IMG/VR virus record: IMGVR_UViG_3300017717_000114
Span: 1 to 20,989 of that record
Strand: one strand, 5' to 3'
Length of the DNA stretch: 20,989 nt
Source: a virus
Shown in pieces: positions 1 to 17,056 of this stretch. Both the position numbers and the translations under genes were made by a program. Numbering within the stretch: position 1 is the first letter of the stretch; every line of letters begins with the position of its first letter. The notes under the pieces were generated by a model, which had not been told where the DNA came from, did no database searches, and saw only the letters and a list, made by a program, of their open reading frames with translations.

Positions 1-161
1 AGAGTAAAGTGACTGCCCTCTGGAGCCTCCCACTTAGGGATGAGTTGGATAAATTCATTAAGTGATAATTCTTTAGCGTTTGACCATTGAGGAGCCAAAG
101 TAGAAACTAAGCAAAGCAAGCATACCTTGACGAACCTCAGGCAAGAGTACAAATCCTTCAA
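1..161 (-). CDS. Partial ORF at left edge, possible exported protein
   Basis: An open frame on the minus strand runs off the left edge. It has no ATG. The best start is TTG at 161, with GGAGG about 10 bases upstream, and the frame then overlaps the 3' end of the membrane-protein gene. The translation begins with a basic stretch, then a hydrophobic run (CLLCLVSTLA), then QWSNAKELSLNEF and IPKWEAPEGSHF, which reads like real protein with a signal peptide cleaved after SNA. A shorter start at TTG 98 is possible. A competing ATG at 59 gives a sequence that looks less protein-like. An exported protein right after a holin-like gene would fit a lysis cassette, but the visible part is too short to assign. 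The product is unknown. Confidence 0.35.
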   Translation of the reverse strand, partial: MKDLYSCLRFVKVCLLCLVSTLAPQWSNAKELSLNEFIQLIPKWEAPEGSHFT

Positions 162-477
162 CTTGTTTAAAGCCTCCGTTGCCGATTAGAAATGAAAGTA
201 AACCCCCACGTTCAGCCTCAAGTGTCACAGGGACATTGATAATAGCCAAAACAAAAGGAGCGATGATAACAGCGAATAGGATACATGCAGCGATTAATCT
301 GCGTACCCATACACCTGCGGTACGACTAGCAGCTCTGTCAGCAGAGTCGTCAGCCATACCTTGAAGGGCTAAGGAGTTTTCCAAAGCCCGCGCTTGTGCT
401 TCCGCTTGGGAAGCCACGAGGCGCATCACAAAACCTGTGACGCCACCTCCCAACATTGATAATAGTTCAATAGACAT
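73..477 (-). CDS. Small holin-like membrane protein
   Basis: A 134-residue protein encoded 6 bases after the scaffold gene. Residues about 58-82 (VRRLIAACILFAVIIAPFVLAI) form a clear membrane segment. A weak N-terminal hydrophobic stretch (LLSMLGGGVTGFVMRL) and a C-terminal one (MLALLSFYFGSSMVKR) could make two more, so the layout resembles three-segment phage holins. The ending FYFGSSMVKR is of a type I associate with small membrane proteins in structural clusters of marine phages. There is no catalytic motif. The leader is A/T-rich without a Shine-Dalgarno site. In T7 the capsid gene follows the scaffold directly, so a membrane protein here is a departure from that order. It may be a holin or a small virion membrane protein; the sequence does not decide. 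Confidence 0.7.
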   Translation of the reverse strand: MSIELLSMLGGGVTGFVMRLVASQAEAQARALENSLALQGMADDSADRAASRTAGVWVRRLIAACILFAVIIAPFVLAIINVPVTLEAERGGLLSFLIGNGGFKQVEGFVLLPEVRQGMLALLSFYFGSSMVKR

Positions 478-12055: not shown

Positions 12056-14473
12056 CTAACTGAAGAAATATGTACTGTTTTTGATTTTGGAGATGTCTGC
12101 TGTGCCGTATGTGGGTGGCTCTGGCAGTTCTAGTTGTGTTGTATATTCTAATTGATGTTTCCAATCGCGTAACAAGTCAACACTAAACATAGAAATAAAT
12201 ACATCTCTTAAACTTTTACTTAAGGCCTCGCACCCTGTGGCGTGTGTGCCGTAGGAATCGTGGATAAAAGCAAAGTCATATATACCAGCCTCCTTGTTTG
12301 CTTTGATGATAGTCTTATGCAGTGCTGCTGCGTCTAGACTGTGTACGAAGTTAGGGCTGACACCGTTCTTCTGACGTACCTTAGATAGACGGTCGTCCTC
12401 CTCGCGGAAACGTACGTGGGTAGCGTTACCACTAATCCATGTGTTGATTTTCTTAGAGGTGAAGTTCAGGTACTCTTGGTGTACTGGGAAACCACTCGGA
12501 GTTACCCAAGAGATAGGCGCACCAGCATCTGTAAGTAACCCTGCACATTGTTGGAACCAATCCATGCACTGCTTAGGTTTGTCGAGAACACTCTCAATAC
12601 CTTGCCATATGGCTTTAGCTAGTACATGTACTGCTAGGTACTTCTCGTCCTCGTCAAAAGGCTTAGAGCGTCCAAGAGCGTGTATCTGTTCTTCGTACCA
12701 CTCAGAGATATAAGCACGATTGCTGTACTCGGTGAGTCCGTAGCTGTAACACATGACAGGACGCTTAGTAGTCTTACGGTCGATACCAAACTCAAGCCAC
12801 TTAGCTGCAATAGCGTCACCCTCGGATGCTTGGTCTTTGAGGAACACCTCTGCTTGTTTAGCTACAACACCATAGATGTCTGCTGGTGTGTCTGTAGGTG
12901 ATACGTTAGTAGCTGCCATACCGTATTCGTCACGAGTAAGCATAGACAGAATCTGGAGTCCGTTGTTGGTAGCATCCATATTCACTGGGAGGAAGGAGTC
13001 TAGCTTACCCGTGTTGTGGAGCGTAGCCCATTCAAAGCACCACGCAAGGAATTGCCAAGGGTCATCTGCTTCTGTCCATAGCTGTTCCTTTGTAGGATTA
13101 GCAGCAATACGGATAGCATCCTTAGCGAAGTTTTCAGCCCAAGCTACACGCTCTTCGAGTGTAACCTTATCGTAACCCCAAGTGTTAGCACCTTGTATAG
13201 CTAACCATTTGCGGTCGGTGGCTGTCTTAATACGTTTAGAACGTGCAAAACGTAACAACCCTCGGCAAGTATCAGAACCTTGGATACCTAAGAAGGCTGG
13301 GATGTTGTAAGCTCTACCACGGAAGTCACAATGTGTAGGGTAGAAGAAGCGGTTACCTGCAAGCTTCTCAGCGAGGTAAAGAACCTTAGATGTGAGCAGC
13401 CGCTTGGAGCGTGTTGCCATGTTGCGTTTATGTACGCCTGAAGCCATGCGTTTCCAGCGAGCGGCTACACGTTTATCTACGTCAAAGTCGTCAGGTAAGT
13501 CAGGGAGCATCTCATCTTCACGGCTAGGTAAGCCACCTATGGTAACAGAGTTCTTCCAAGCCCAAGTCATGGTAGCTAGGACTTCATCGTTAATACGCCA
13601 CGGTGTCTGCTGGATAAGGTTGCAAGCCTCCATAGGCTCTTCAATCTTACCTTCAATACTACGGAGGAAATCCATGTTGGTAGTTTTAATGAAGGGAAGC
13701 TTAGGTAGCTCGGTGTCTTCAGTCTTGTAACCACCTTCCCAAACATTAGCCCACTCTTGTGGTGTGTCTACGGTAGGAAGCCAGAAAGGACTGAGCATCT
13801 CCTTGTGATAGTTGAACTCACGAATCCACTTCATGGTGTCCTTACTAGCAACAACGTAACGTGTAGGGTTTCTACGTCCTGTGTCTGTGATGTAGCGGTA
13901 CTTAATGATACCTGTAACGTCACGGAGTAGCTCTACTAGGTTGAGACCTGCAGCCATAACATCTCTACGTGTCCAAGCTGGTACGTCTTCCATGAGACCT
14001 TTCTCTACTTCATGTTTAATGCTTACACGCACGTGGTGCTTAGAGGCATTCCAGTTACGTTTACGGAGCGCGCCTAAGATGATGCCTTCGCCCTTCTGAT
14101 TAGTCTTGGATAAAATCTCACAACGATTCTGGTAGTCGATAACATTACCTACCTTAGTACACAGCGACGCCATCTTGGTACTACGTGTCATCTGGTCGAG
14201 AACCGTACGGATAACAAGAAAACCTATCTTGTCCGAAGGTGTGGCAATAAGGTCTATCTGCCACTGTCCCTTGTTCTTTACTTTTGACCACTTTGTTTTA
14301 GTTTCATCAATAGCTTTGATGTAGCTAGGTAGTGCGCCTCTAATAAGTCTCTGGCCATAAGCGGTCTCGGACTCCATACTACGAGAGCGTGCGCCCTCTA
14401 CTTTATTTCTGTAGCGACCGACTCCAATCTCGGTCATATCTGTATTGAGTTCTTCTTGTGTTAAGTTATCCAT
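12056..14473 (-). CDS. Single-subunit DNA-directed RNA polymerase (T7 gp1-like)
   Basis: An 805-residue phage RNA polymerase (T7 is 883). Catalytic residues: VNMDATNNGLQ (Asp500, T7 Asp537), DRKTTKRPVMCYSYG (Arg566, Lys570, Tyr578; T7 Arg627, Lys631, Tyr639), SPNFVHSLDAAAL (His711, T7 His784) and HDSYGTHA (Asp739, T7 Asp812). CDFRGRAYNIPAFL (382-395) is the conserved palm-entry motif. The C-terminus ends in aromatic residues (STYFFS), like the T7 FAFA foot that lines the active site. The polymerase would transcribe the middle and late genes; the specificity loop region (about 655-690) differs from T7, so its promoters cannot be guessed from the T7 consensus. It is the first gene after the attP-like region. 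Confidence 0.97.
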   Translation of the reverse strand: MDNLTQEELNTDMTEIGVGRYRNKVEGARSRSMESETAYGQRLIRGALPSYIKAIDETKTKWSKVKNKGQWQIDLIATPSDKIGFLVIRTVLDQMTRSTKMASLCTKVGNVIDYQNRCEILSKTNQKGEGIILGALRKRNWNASKHHVRVSIKHEVEKGLMEDVPAWTRRDVMAAGLNLVELLRDVTGIIKYRYITDTGRRNPTRYVVASKDTMKWIREFNYHKEMLSPFWLPTVDTPQEWANVWEGGYKTEDTELPKLPFIKTTNMDFLRSIEGKIEEPMEACNLIQQTPWRINDEVLATMTWAWKNSVTIGGLPSREDEMLPDLPDDFDVDKRVAARWKRMASGVHKRNMATRSKRLLTSKVLYLAEKLAGNRFFYPTHCDFRGRAYNIPAFLGIQGSDTCRGLLRFARSKRIKTATDRKWLAIQGANTWGYDKVTLEERVAWAENFAKDAIRIAANPTKEQLWTEADDPWQFLAWCFEWATLHNTGKLDSFLPVNMDATNNGLQILSMLTRDEYGMAATNVSPTDTPADIYGVVAKQAEVFLKDQASEGDAIAAKWLEFGIDRKTTKRPVMCYSYGLTEYSNRAYISEWYEEQIHALGRSKPFDEDEKYLAVHVLAKAIWQGIESVLDKPKQCMDWFQQCAGLLTDAGAPISWVTPSGFPVHQEYLNFTSKKINTWISGNATHVRFREEDDRLSKVRQKNGVSPNFVHSLDAAALHKTIIKANKEAGIYDFAFIHDSYGTHATGCEALSKSLRDVFISMFSVDLLRDWKHQLEYTTQLELPEPPTYGTADISKIKNSTYFFS

Positions 14474-14732
14474 GATTAATTTTTTGTCAGCATTTTGTCA
14501 CCACCGCAAAGTGTTTGTCACTAGGGAAAGGGATAAGCTGTTGATTATATTGTTTAAAATTCAATGCTTTATAGCATATGACTGAAAAGAAGGGGATTGA
14601 AATTCCGTTCCATCAAATTGTCATACACCAAGCAGGTAATTAAGTATTTGATTTTAAAGGTTATTTGACTGAGAAGGAAAAAAGAGATTTGCCACTGGTG
14701 ACGCACTCTTGACGTAGTTTGTCAGTGTTTTG
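14474..14732. other. Attachment-site-like region between RNAP and integrase block
   Basis: A 259-base non-coding stretch beside the integrase block. It holds two arms of short direct repeats (TTTGTCA type) on the left and right edges, with about 200 bases between them, the layout expected of attP for an arm-binding tyrosine recombinase. The centre has small inverted repeats (ATGCT/AGCAT at 14564-14573, GGA/TCC around ATTGAAATT near 14595-14606) that could hold the core, but no tRNA-like 3' end was recognised, so the integration target is not visible. The segment also supplies the leader of the RNA polymerase gene. Confidence 0.6.
14482..14520. repeat. Left arm: three TTTGTCA repeats
   Basis: TTTTGTCA occurs at 14482-14489 and 14493-14500 (11 bases apart), and GTTTGTCA at 14513-14520. 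The first pair, written TTTGTCAGCATTTTGTCAC, matches the right-arm pair with two mismatches in 19 bases. These are probable integrase arm-type sites. Confidence 0.65.
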
Positions 14733-14971: not shown

Positions 14972-15979
14972 TTAAATACTTTGTTCAAGTGCGTCCCTAG
15001 CGTCAATCATATTAGCAGGGAAAAGTTTAGCGTATCGTAAAGTCATCTCAAAGGTACGGTGTCCCATGAACTCCTTAACGACCTGTAGTGGTACTTTGCG
15101 TTGTACTAAACGTGACGCACAAGTGTGCCGCATGAGGTAGAACACATATTCAGGGTCGGTGTCTTGGCTGCACTCACGTACAAACTTCCAGTTATTCTTA
15201 ATGCTGGACTCCGTGAAACGTGCAAAAGGATACTCTTCATCATTGAGATTAACGAATGCTTGGTAGGCACGCTCGGTGAGTGGTATGGTACGAGGGTAAG
15301 CGTTCTTAGTCTTACGTAGGTCAATTAACCACCCAAGTTCAGGGTCGTGGCGTACTGATGTAGCCTTAGCATTACGTGACTCAATAGGGCGCATACCTGT
15401 ATCTACAGACCAGCGAACAAAGTCAGCAAACTCGTAGCGGTCATCTGACTCTAAGAAGTCTAATATGTCGGTCTCTTCTTCACCTGTAAGGAAACGTAAA
15501 CGTGCATTACCTTTGGTCTTCTTCATCTCAAACTTAGGGCGGTTTGTTATATAGTTGCGGTCAACTGCAAACGTCATAGCTTTACTGAGTGTACTAAGGC
15601 GGCTGTTTATTGTGGAAGGTTTAAGGCTCTTACGCTCCATTGCTGTAATGAAGTCGTCCAGCGCGGTTGTTGTGATAGTAGAAACCTCGGTGTCTTCTCC
15701 GAAGTGTTCCTCTAGTAGTCTTATGTTAGATAGCTGCTTGCGCTCGTTAGCTCCATTCTCCCAGAACCTCAGGTATGTCTTGTCGAGTAACTCGCGGACT
15801 GTAAGCCCTTTAGCGTTACCTTCAAGCATGTCTCTGTGTGGTAGTCCAAGTCTTATACGCTTCTTTAGCTCGCTCTCCCACGCCATAGCTTCTTCGTGCG
15901 TAGGGAACTGGCGTCTATATCTAAATCCGCTCGCCATGAAGTCGGCCATGAATTTATTACCATTTATTCGTATGCTCAT
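14972..15979 (-). CDS. int: Tyrosine recombinase / phage integrase
   Basis: A 335-residue integrase. Residues about 1-50 form an N-terminal arm-binding type domain (RINGNKFMADFMASGFRYRR), 58-150 the SAM-like core-binding domain (LTVRELLDKTYLRFWENG and on), and 160-335 the catalytic domain. Catalytic residues: TGMRPIES (Arg197), the beta-hairpin lysine in RKTKNAYPR (Lys223 or 225), YLMRHTCASRL (Arg284; the usual box II His is Tyr281), GHRTFEMTLRYAKL (His307 and the nucleophile Tyr316). The His-to-Tyr change in box II is found in other phage integrases. It would catalyse site-specific integration and excision at the repeat-flanked region next door. It is placed upstream of the RNA polymerase gene, as in integrase-bearing marine T7-like phages. 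Confidence 0.95.
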   Translation of the reverse strand: MSIRINGNKFMADFMASGFRYRRQFPTHEEAMAWESELKKRIRLGLPHRDMLEGNAKGLTVRELLDKTYLRFWENGANERKQLSNIRLLEEHFGEDTEVSTITTTALDDFITAMERKSLKPSTINSRLSTLSKAMTFAVDRNYITNRPKFEMKKTKGNARLRFLTGEEETDILDFLESDDRYEFADFVRWSVDTGMRPIESRNAKATSVRHDPELGWLIDLRKTKNAYPRTIPLTERAYQAFVNLNDEEYPFARFTESSIKNNWKFVRECSQDTDPEYVFYLMRHTCASRLVQRKVPLQVVKEFMGHRTFEMTLRYAKLFPANMIDARDALEQSI

Positions 15980-16184: not shown

Positions 16185-16355
16185 TTATTCATTGATGGCG
16201 GTTTGTAAGTGTGTGTAACGTAGCATTTGCGCCTGTTCAATGTCGCCTCGTGTGTCTTCAAGCTTGAGAGCTACACTGAATACAGCCATGAAGATAGCGA
16301 ATAATAATGTGGATACTACTAGTATACCTATGATGTCTTGTCGTGTGTCGTTCAT
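16185..16355 (-). CDS. Small single-span membrane protein, 56 residues
   Basis: An ORF of 56 codons starting with ATG at 16355. The translation begins MNDTRQDIIG, followed by a membrane segment at about residues 9-31 (ILVVSTLLFAIFMAVFSVAL) and a charged C-terminus (KLEDTRGDIEQAQMLRYTHL). Topology is probably N-out or N-in with one span; the short charged tail is helix-forming. It lies 20 bases downstream of the PEP-CTERM gene with a CA-rich leader (ATCCACACACAAATAAAC), so the two may be co-expressed and could act together at the envelope. No family is recognised; an accessory membrane toxin, holin-like or superinfection protein are all possible. Confidence 0.7.
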   Translation of the reverse strand: MNDTRQDIIGILVVSTLLFAIFMAVFSVALKLEDTRGDIEQAQMLRYTHLQTAINE

Positions 16356-16375: not shown

Positions 16376-16852
16376 TTAATAGTGGCGGTATGCTAGTACA
16401 GCTATAAGAGCAAGCAAGCCTAAAAGTAATACATAGGTGCTAGGCTCAGGGATAACAGAAACAACGCGCAATGTCAGGCTTCCACCTTCTAGTGTCTTAA
16501 TGACTGCAACTTGGTATTCCTTTGATGCGTTGTGTCGTGCTGTAGCTGTAACAATTAAGATGTCATCGTGTGTGATGTGGCTAGTGTCTGTAAGTGGAAG
16601 CTCCCATGGATAAATTACTTTATTGTCAAAGCTCCAATCCATAAGGGAAAGGCTTTGGAACTCTACTCGGTCGCCCATGCCTGCAATCTTGAAGAACTCT
16701 CCATCAGTCATGCGAACCTTTGCGCTCCCGTTCGAAAACTTAACGCTGGGTTCATTAGCTAGTATGCCAGTATTAATGCTTGTGATGTTAACACCTGCGA
16801 AGGTGGACGTGCTTAATGATAGTAAAGCGAGTGTGATTAGTTTTAATTTCAT
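16376..16852 (-). CDS. Phage-encoded PEP-CTERM sorting-signal protein
   Basis: A 158-residue exported protein. Residues 1-19 (MKLKLITLALLSLSTSTFA) form a textbook signal peptide with cleavage after FA. The C-terminus has VIPEPSTY (PEP at 135-137), a hydrophobic segment (about 141-154) and a short basic end (YRHY). This is the tripartite PEP-CTERM anchor processed by an exosortase (EpsH/XrtA family) in Gram-negative bacteria that make exopolysaccharide. The middle (20-130) is a beta-rich domain with no known motif. The host would export, cleave and perhaps attach the protein at the surface or in the matrix. It lies in the early array, not among virion genes, so it is probably cargo altering the host surface, for example against superinfection. 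The call rests on motif recognition. Confidence 0.85.
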   Translation of the reverse strand: MKLKLITLALLSLSTSTFAGVNITSINTGILANEPSVKFSNGSAKVRMTDGEFFKIAGMGDRVEFQSLSLMDWSFDNKVIYPWELPLTDTSHITHDDILIVTATARHNASKEYQVAVIKTLEGGSLTLRVVSVIPEPSTYVLLLGLLALIAVLAYRHY

Positions 16853-16858
16853 ATTGGA

Positions 16859-17056
16859 TTATTGTTGGCGGTTTGTCATGTCGTTCTTTTGTACTTGTTC
16901 TGCGTATTCTGTAAGGCCGCTCTTCAAATCTAGAGGCAGCCCAGTGAATCGCATTGCGTAGTTAACAGCCTTGTCAGGTGTTGCTTGGTGGGAGCAAAGG
17001 ACGTTACGAATGATTGTTTGAGCGTCCTTGAGTTGGCTTGTGATGTTTGTTGGCAT
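16859..17056 (-). CDS. Hypothetical 65-residue early protein
   Basis: Helix-rich protein, MPTNITSQLKDAQTIIRNVL at the start, then CSHQATPDKAVNYAMRFTG, and a Gln-rich end (EQVQKNDMTNRQQ). No membrane segment or known motif. It is 6 bases ahead of the PEP-CTERM gene, so both share a message. The leader between it and the upstream gene is short (CTAAACCCTACCAACT before ATG), a weaker version of the CA-type leaders in this array. Confidence 0.7.
   Translation of the reverse strand: MPTNITSQLKDAQTIIRNVLCSHQATPDKAVNYAMRFTGLPLDLKSGLTEYAEQVQKNDMTNRQQ

What the first reader, a model, noticed from the sequence alone, without database searches (positions are those of the whole stretch)
16376..16852. 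Phage-encoded PEP-CTERM protein
The ORF has both a signal peptide (cleavage after FA at residue 19) and a C-terminal PEP-CTERM anchor (VIPEPSTY, hydrophobic run, basic end). PEP-CTERM/exosortase is a host system of exopolysaccharide-producing Gram-negative bacteria. A small phage carrying a substrate for it, in the early array next to an integrase, suggests that the phage places its own protein on the host surface or in its matrix. That could cause superinfection exclusion or change biofilm behaviour of a lysogen. It also points to the host group.
Basis: partly seen in the sequence, partly recalled or inferred. Interest (0 to 1): 0.88.

Follow-up and report, generated by a model that had tools for sequence, protein, structure and literature searches.

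The report
Phage-made protein with host sorting tag
This marine phage carries a small secreted protein that ends in the tag bacteria use to have proteins processed and placed in their outer envelope, and other unrelated phages carry the same gene or other proteins with the same tag, so tagging their own proteins for the host's sorting machinery looks like a repeated phage strategy.

Summary
It has a signal peptide and a C-terminal PEP-CTERM tail that passes both curated models, though only just. Its own basic end (YRHY) is weak, but homologues end in KRR or RRR. The family has nine full-length phage members, 46-53% identical to the window protein and under purifying selection, in at least three phage types: temperate T7-like podoviruses, T4-like myoviruses, and a lineage related to Verrucomicrobia phage P8625. 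Seven of nine hit the PEP-CTERM model; two carry PE[LI]. Two restrictive tail patterns found 63 PEP-CTERM ORFs in viral contigs. With the window they form 18 body clusters sharing mainly the tail, the hallmark of a sorting signal; several contigs carry capsid, terminase or polymerase genes nearby. The host is probably a marine Verrucomicrobium of subdivision 4, a phylum known to have exosortase: P8625 gene sharing and missing Shine-Dalgarno sites support this. The attP tRNA of relatives instead matches Rhodobacteraceae, an unresolved conflict. Processing by the host exosortase is inferred. Superinfection exclusion is my best guess for the job but untested; a lysis role or matrix change is not excluded. 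I found no published report of such phage proteins.

The parts
16376..16852 (-). phage PEP-CTERM protein gene, 158 aa (includes stop)
   Evidence: homologues; dN/dS 0.07-0.18 among closer homologues
16796..16852 (-). signal peptide, residues 1-19 (MKLKLITLALLSLSTSTFA)
   Evidence: sequence inspection and hydropathy; no cysteine, so no lipobox
16457..16795 (-). exported body, residues 20-132, predicted mostly beta, no confident known fold
   Evidence: AlphaFold2 model mean pLDDT 79.7, body mostly 83-94; no Foldseek match at E<=0.001; best VIA Z 5.0 to PAS domains, within the range the tool calls common
16385..16453 (-). PEP-CTERM sorting tail (PEP at residues 135-137, transmembrane helix about 137-155, short basic end)
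   Evidence: PF07589 and TIGR02595; helix 139-157 in model
16859..17056 (-). 65-aa ORF ending 6 bases before the PEP gene start; probable same transcript; homologues in relatives lie upstream of the integrase
16185..16355 (-). 56-aa ORF with one apparent membrane segment starting 20 bases after the PEP gene; possible partner, no homologue found
14972..15979 (-). tyrosine integrase
   Evidence: PF00589 E 1.1e-16, PHROG 1
12056..14473 (-). T7-like RNA polymerase (marks the phage type)
   Evidence: PF00940 E 4.4e-96, PHROG 414
73..477 (-). membrane protein (holin-like by shape only); homologue in Verrucomicrobia phage P8625 and in the PEP-carrying T4-like phages
   Evidence: 45% to P8625, 53-54% to L088/L089

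Best explanation
The gene encodes a phage cargo protein that is exported by the host Sec pathway and handed to the host's own exosortase through its PEP-CTERM tail. The exosortase is inferred to remove the tail and place the beta-rich body in the outer envelope of the infected or lysogenic cell. Shown: PEP-CTERM tail by curated models, signal peptide by inspection, conservation and purifying selection, exchange among unrelated phages, and the same kind of tail on many unrelated phage proteins. Inferred: cleavage and anchoring by the host exosortase (about 0.7). My best guess for the benefit is that the displayed protein changes the surface so that competing phages cannot adsorb or inject (superinfection exclusion), about 0.35. 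This fits exchange among several phage types sharing a host and presence in both temperate and T4-like phages.
For: Tail over both curated cut-offs. Seven of nine family members match TIGR02595 and six match PF07589 at E<=1. P-E, the G-L in the helix and a final R are invariant. dN/dS is 0.07-0.18 for the closer pairs. Bodies of the podovirus L002 and of L084, which is related to P8625, are identical at 112 of 115 positions although the phages are otherwise different. The T4-like L088/L089 carry it too. Many phage bodies share mainly the last ~25 residues: 64 ORFs in 18 body clusters, some near capsid, terminase and PolA genes. No match to the exosortase family in 21 viral records, so the enzyme would have to come from the host, though many records are fragments. 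Exosortase and PEP-CTERM proteins are documented in Verrucomicrobia (PMC3237569, PMC4960237).
Against: The window's own basic end is poor (YRHY) and its HMM scores are marginal. Two homologues (L022 PELAEF, L088 PEIAAF) lack the second proline and have no PF07589 match, so either recognition is looser or some copies are plain anchors. No genome of the likely host group was seen, so an exosortase in the actual host is not shown. Nothing tests exclusion. In three phages the gene follows a SleB-type wall hydrolase and in one a holin-like gene, which also suits a lysis role.
Confidence: 0.55

Rival explanations
1. Plain membrane anchor: the C-terminal helix only holds a periplasmic protein in the inner membrane, where it could still block DNA injection by other phages; the PEP motif is incidental.
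For: Marginal HMM scores for the window; two homologues without the second proline; weak basic end YRHY.
Against: P-E invariant at about 50% identity; seven of nine match the sorting model; tails alike on unrelated bodies, which a plain anchor would not need.
Confidence: 0.15
2. Lysis accessory: an envelope protein that works with the wall hydrolase or holin, like a unimolecular spanin, with the PEP tail as its membrane anchor.
For: Gene directly after a signal-peptide SleB-type hydrolase (PF07486) in L084, L088 and L089; after a holin-like gene in L022; signal peptide plus C-terminal helix with beta-rich middle.
Against: No cysteine in the window protein, hence no lipobox, the outer-membrane anchor of a spanin; in the window and in L002, L003 and L085 the gene lies in the integrase region, not beside recognised lysis genes; three related contigs with the same hydrolase (L053, L061, L064) showed no homologue, though L061 holds little DNA on one side.
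Confidence: 0.12
3. Matrix or biofilm conversion: the sorted protein alters the exopolysaccharide coat or aggregation of infected cells rather than excluding phages.
For: PEP-CTERM proteins are tied to exopolysaccharide and floc formation (cited in PMC12642866; abstract of PMC9012009); some other phages pair a PEP-CTERM protein with a signal-peptide protein that looks like an outer-membrane barrel.
Against: T4-like phages are normally lytic and would gain little from long-term biofilm change; the barrel match is below cut-off (PF10082 E 0.0089); the window has no such pair.
Confidence: 0.15
4. Passenger: a host gene recently picked up or mis-binned, with no phage function.
For: No phage homologue in the public phage records searched.
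Against: Homologues in several phage types with dN/dS well below 1; no convincing homologue in 299 Pseudomonadota, 296 Rhodobacteraceae or the plasmid collection.
Confidence: 0.03

Closest known systems
PEP-CTERM / exosortase (EpsH, XrtA) sorting substrates, TIGR02595 / PF07589
   Same: Signal peptide, PEP motif, membrane helix and basic end at the extreme C-terminus; the tail shared by otherwise unrelated proteins.
   Different: Encoded by phages, exchanged among phage types, no exopolysaccharide locus nearby, new body family; some members use PE[LI].
Phage surface-exclusion morons (for example Cor, Llp, Sie proteins; from general knowledge)
   Same: Small exported phage protein expected in the envelope, found in several phages of one host, often near integrase or early genes.
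   Different: Known ones are lipoproteins or membrane proteins; none known to me uses an exosortase tag. Function here untested.
Unimolecular spanins (from general knowledge)
   Same: N-terminal export signal, beta-rich middle, C-terminal membrane helix; sometimes next to a wall hydrolase.
   Different: No lipobox cysteine; integrase-region position in most of the podoviruses; PEP motif.
Verrucomicrobia phage P8625 (KP792622)
   Same: Shares the holin-like protein, the KLSE-repeat protein, dNMP kinase and another ORF with PEP-carrying phages; also lacks Shine-Dalgarno sites.
   Different: No PEP-CTERM ORF found in it by the motif scan; a siphovirus, not T7-like.

Membership tests
PEP-CTERM sorting substrate | C-terminal tail over the curated model cut-off | tested here: met
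   PF07589 21.0 bits vs 20.7; TIGR02595 16.1 vs 16; marginal
PEP-CTERM sorting substrate | N-terminal signal peptide | tested here: met
   Residues 1-19 with K2/K4, hydrophobic core, TFA cleavage site; inspection and hydropathy only, no dedicated predictor
PEP-CTERM sorting substrate | Membrane helix followed by a basic cluster at the end | tested here: met
   Helix 137-155, mean hydropathy 2.04, helix 139-157 in model; basic cluster weak in the window (RH), KRR/RRR in homologues
PEP-CTERM sorting substrate | PEP motif kept in homologues | tested here: inconclusive
   7 of 9 have PEP; L022 has PEL and L088 PEI
PEP-CTERM sorting substrate | Tail shared by proteins with unrelated bodies | tested here: met
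   18 body clusters in viral contigs; alignments between clusters mostly limited to the tail
PEP-CTERM sorting substrate | Exosortase in the genome of the organism that makes it | not testable with these tools
   Host not identified to species; no exosortase match in 21 viral records, many of them fragments; exosortase known in other Verrucomicrobia (PMC3237569, PMC4960237)
PEP-CTERM sorting substrate | Cleavage of the tail and surface or matrix location | not testable with these tools
   Needs an experiment
Unimolecular spanin | Lipobox cysteine at the signal-peptide end | tested here: not met
   No cysteine in the window protein
Unimolecular spanin | Located in the lysis cassette | tested here: inconclusive
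   Next to a SleB hydrolase in L084, L088, L089 and a holin-like ORF in L022; not in the window, L002, L003, L085
Superinfection exclusion protein | Expression protects the cell from related phages | not testable with these tools
   Needs an experiment
Autographiviridae-type (T7-like) temperate podovirus | Single-subunit RNA polymerase, T7-type connector and scaffold, integrase upstream of the polymerase | tested here: met
   PF00940, PF12236, PF05396, PF00589; same integrase-polymerase order in annotated Autographiviridae OR420743 and AP013544

The most novel reading that the evidence does not exclude
Phages of exosortase-bearing bacteria routinely arm infected cells with their own PEP-CTERM proteins: a broad, so far undescribed class of phage cargo, with many unrelated bodies, that exploits the host sorting enzyme to remodel the cell surface against rival phages.
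Probability: 0.35. Interest if true: 0.82.

Novelty: new variant of a known kind. Interest (0 to 1): 0.62.

Why it matters
PEP-CTERM/exosortase is a large bacterial surface system whose substrates have few known jobs. Finding that phages of several types carry and exchange likely substrates for it gives a set of small, conserved, testable proteins with a likely selective purpose (phage competition at the surface). If true, it would make phages a tool for studying exosortase sorting, point to exosortase-sorted proteins as phage shields or receptor changers, and help assign hosts to uncultured marine phages.

Tried and rejected
(1) Homologues in 50,697 phage records and 72,556 plasmids: none. 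(2) Host homologues in 299 Pseudomonadota and 296 Rhodobacteraceae: none convincing; one C-terminal-only hit at E 0.003. (3) Host by attP: the tRNA-Leu(CAA) 3' half in relatives matched Rhodobacteraceae or alphaproteobacterial genomes in the 80 hits shown of 99. I do not accept Rhodobacteraceae as host because the phages lack Shine-Dalgarno sites while Roseobacter phage CRP-125 has them, no integrase relative at E<=1e-40 was found in 395 Rhodobacteraceae (that search had no positive control), and the Rhodobacteraceae model hits whose tails I could read are VPVPA or IPVPA type. (4) The window's own attP region has no tRNA; a DNA search in 296 Rhodobacteraceae gave only noise. (5) Fold search: no Foldseek match at E<=0.001; VIA best Z 5.0 to PAS domains, in the range the tool calls common. 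(6) Sequence search of solved structures: nothing significant. (7) A 27-aa and a 30-aa peptide search of phage records: nothing, but short queries are weak tests. (9) Literature: I found no paper in the held library that describes PEP-CTERM proteins of phages, judging from titles, abstracts and the passages read; subscription journals are not covered.

Full report
What is there. The ORF lies at 16852→16376 on the minus strand and encodes 158 aa. It starts 6 bases after the stop of a 65-aa ORF and is followed 20 bases later by a 56-aa ORF with one apparent membrane segment; next come the integrase (14972-15979) and a T7-like RNA polymerase (12056-14473). Residues 1-19 are a signal peptide by inspection. 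The tail VIPEPSTYVLLLGLLALIAVLAYRHY passes PF07589 (21.0 vs 20.7 bits) and TIGR02595 (16.1 vs 16). These are narrow passes and the basic end is poor, so the window alone is a marginal case.

Homologues settle the point. RNA-polymerase relatives were fetched and scanned; L002, L003, L022 and the partial L010 carry a homologue. A profile search added L084, L085, L087, L088 and L089. In the nine-member alignment, window included, identity to the window protein is 46-53%. P135, E136, G145, L146 and R156 are invariant, and most homologues end in KRR or RRR. Seven of nine match TIGR02595 and six match PF07589 at E<=1; not all of these pass the cut-off. L022 (PELAEF) and L088 (PEIAAF) keep P-E, helix and basic end but not the second proline. 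dN/dS is 0.07-0.18 for the closer pairs.

The gene moves among phage types. L002, L003, L022, L085 and the window are integrase-bearing T7-like podoviruses; in the first four the gene lies directly downstream of the integrase (in L022 after a holin-like ORF) and before the polymerase, in the window upstream of the integrase. Most other close relatives lack it in the DNA held. L089 is T4-like (gp32 and T4 baseplate protein, and a gp19-like protein below cut-off), and L088 has the same gene order and the start of the same gp32-like ORF. L084 has replication-type ORFs 65% and 53% identical to contigs carrying the P8625 terminase. Bodies of L002 and L084 agree at 112 of 115 positions, so exchange across phage types was fairly recent. 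In L084, L088 and L089 the gene follows a signal-peptide SleB-type hydrolase (PF07486).

It is not a single case. A degenerate DNA pattern for PEPxT[FY]ALxxG in viral contigs gave 30 hits; 20 are complete ORFs ending 23-33 residues later with a basic end, and one more is cut by the end of the DNA held. A second pattern (PEPxTLALLGLG) gave 43 hits, all PEP-CTERM-like ORFs. A scrambled pattern gave 15 hits that collapse to a few sequences; my crude length-and-charge test passed four of them, but these are one proline-rich ORF without a membrane segment. With the window the set is 64 ORFs in 18 body clusters; in the members compared directly, similarity between clusters is mostly confined to the last ~25 residues. 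One cluster (L267) looks like a bacterial gene. Phage neighbours were checked for a few: capsid (L326, L331), terminase (L321), PolA (L335); gp32 in L262, L269 and L276. In five ~42-kb records the match lies inside the record, not at its end. Completeness is not given for these records, and I did not check every contig for viral origin. In L262, L276 and L277 the PEP gene is followed 3 bases later by a signal-peptide protein; the two complete copies end in VFVGYRLKF. PF10082 matches L262's copy at E 0.0089, below cut-off, so the outer-membrane barrel reading is a lead only.

Host. Phage P8625 infects a marine Verrucomicrobium of subdivision 4 (PMC4642752). It shares the holin-like protein (45-49% with the window, 70-72% with L088/L089), the KLSE-repeat protein (56% with L002), and a dNMP kinase (43%) and another ORF (60%) with L084. 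With annotated or hand-listed starts, Shine-Dalgarno-like sites precede 8% of window genes, 12% in P8625, 12% in L089 and 64% in Roseobacter phage CRP-125, against a background near 10%; a cruder test on the other loci points the same way. Against this, attP sequences upstream of the polymerase in L003, L018 and others equal the 3' half of tRNA-Leu(CAA) of Rhodobacteraceae. A third attP version (L002, L012, L022, L085) matched none of the genome hits shown. Rhodobacteraceae gave no homologue of the PEP protein and no close integrase, and the PEP-CTERM-model hits that I could read there have VPVPA or IPVPA tails. I favour Verrucomicrobia (about 0.75) and leave the tRNA match unexplained. Exosortase and PEP-CTERM proteins are documented in that phylum (PMC3237569, PMC4960237).

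Mechanism. None of 21 viral records examined matched the exosortase family, so the host enzyme would have to act, with the caveat that many records are fragments. The body is a small beta-rich domain (pLDDT mostly 83-94) with no confident structural relative. I infer Sec export, exosortase processing and display in the outer envelope. Presence in both temperate and T4-like phages argues against a purely lysogenic benefit and fits exclusion of competitors, but neighbouring lysis-type genes in four contigs keep a lysis role open. None of this is tested.

Novelty. The tail and sorting system are known. What I did not find described is that phages carry such proteins, share one family across several phage types, and do so with many unrelated bodies. 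The literature search covered open PMC papers only.

Noticed in passing
L262 10423-12246, L276 9320-11122, L277 1-1392: Phage contigs (L262 and L276 T4-like, L277 less certain) with a PEP-CTERM gene followed 3 bases later by a signal-peptide protein of about 385 aa that looks like an outer-membrane barrel (weak PF10082).
   Followed up: partly
L326, L331, L321, L335, L336 and relatives: Viral contigs of about 42 kb with PEP-CTERM genes inside the record, in L326/L331 near a PF13252 capsid gene; the largest body cluster has 23 members; no homologue of one member (L331) in public phage records.
   Followed up: partly
window 14578-14643 (+): Between the repeated TGACAAA-type sites, where attP should lie, an open stretch reads MTEKKGIEIPFHQIVIHQAGN*, which resembles the end of an MscS-type channel from memory; possibly the integration target of this phage, unlike the tRNA-Leu of relatives.
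   Followed up: partly
L002 5264-5318, L003, L018, L022, L039 (minus strand): attP with the 3' half of tRNA-Leu(CAA), identical in some to Rhodobacteraceae, in conflict with other host evidence; L025 has a tRNA-Leu(TAA)-like piece and L075 a tmRNA-like end.
   Followed up: partly
window, whole: Genes of this phage, of its relatives and of P8625 lack Shine-Dalgarno sites (8-12% with listed starts), useful as a host marker against Roseobacter phages (64% in the one tested).
   Followed up: yes
L002 4287-4799, L084 6198-6919, L087, P8625 CDS 42: Family of MKxLSExxxELGI proteins with DANGNETYYENSDGYW repeats, in variable copy number and arrays beside the PEP gene; function unknown.
   Followed up: no
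L259, L260, L265, L268, L282: A 114-117 aa signal-peptide protein with a PEP-CTERM tail in contigs of about 30-73 kb, some of which carry Ig-like and glycosyltransferase-like ORFs; they may not be phages of the same host, and viral origin was not checked.
   Followed up: no
L022 963-1496, L088 8121-8606: Two homologues in different phage types share the altered tail PE[LI]AxFxLxLGL, as if a second tail version is recognised or recombined.
   Followed up: partly
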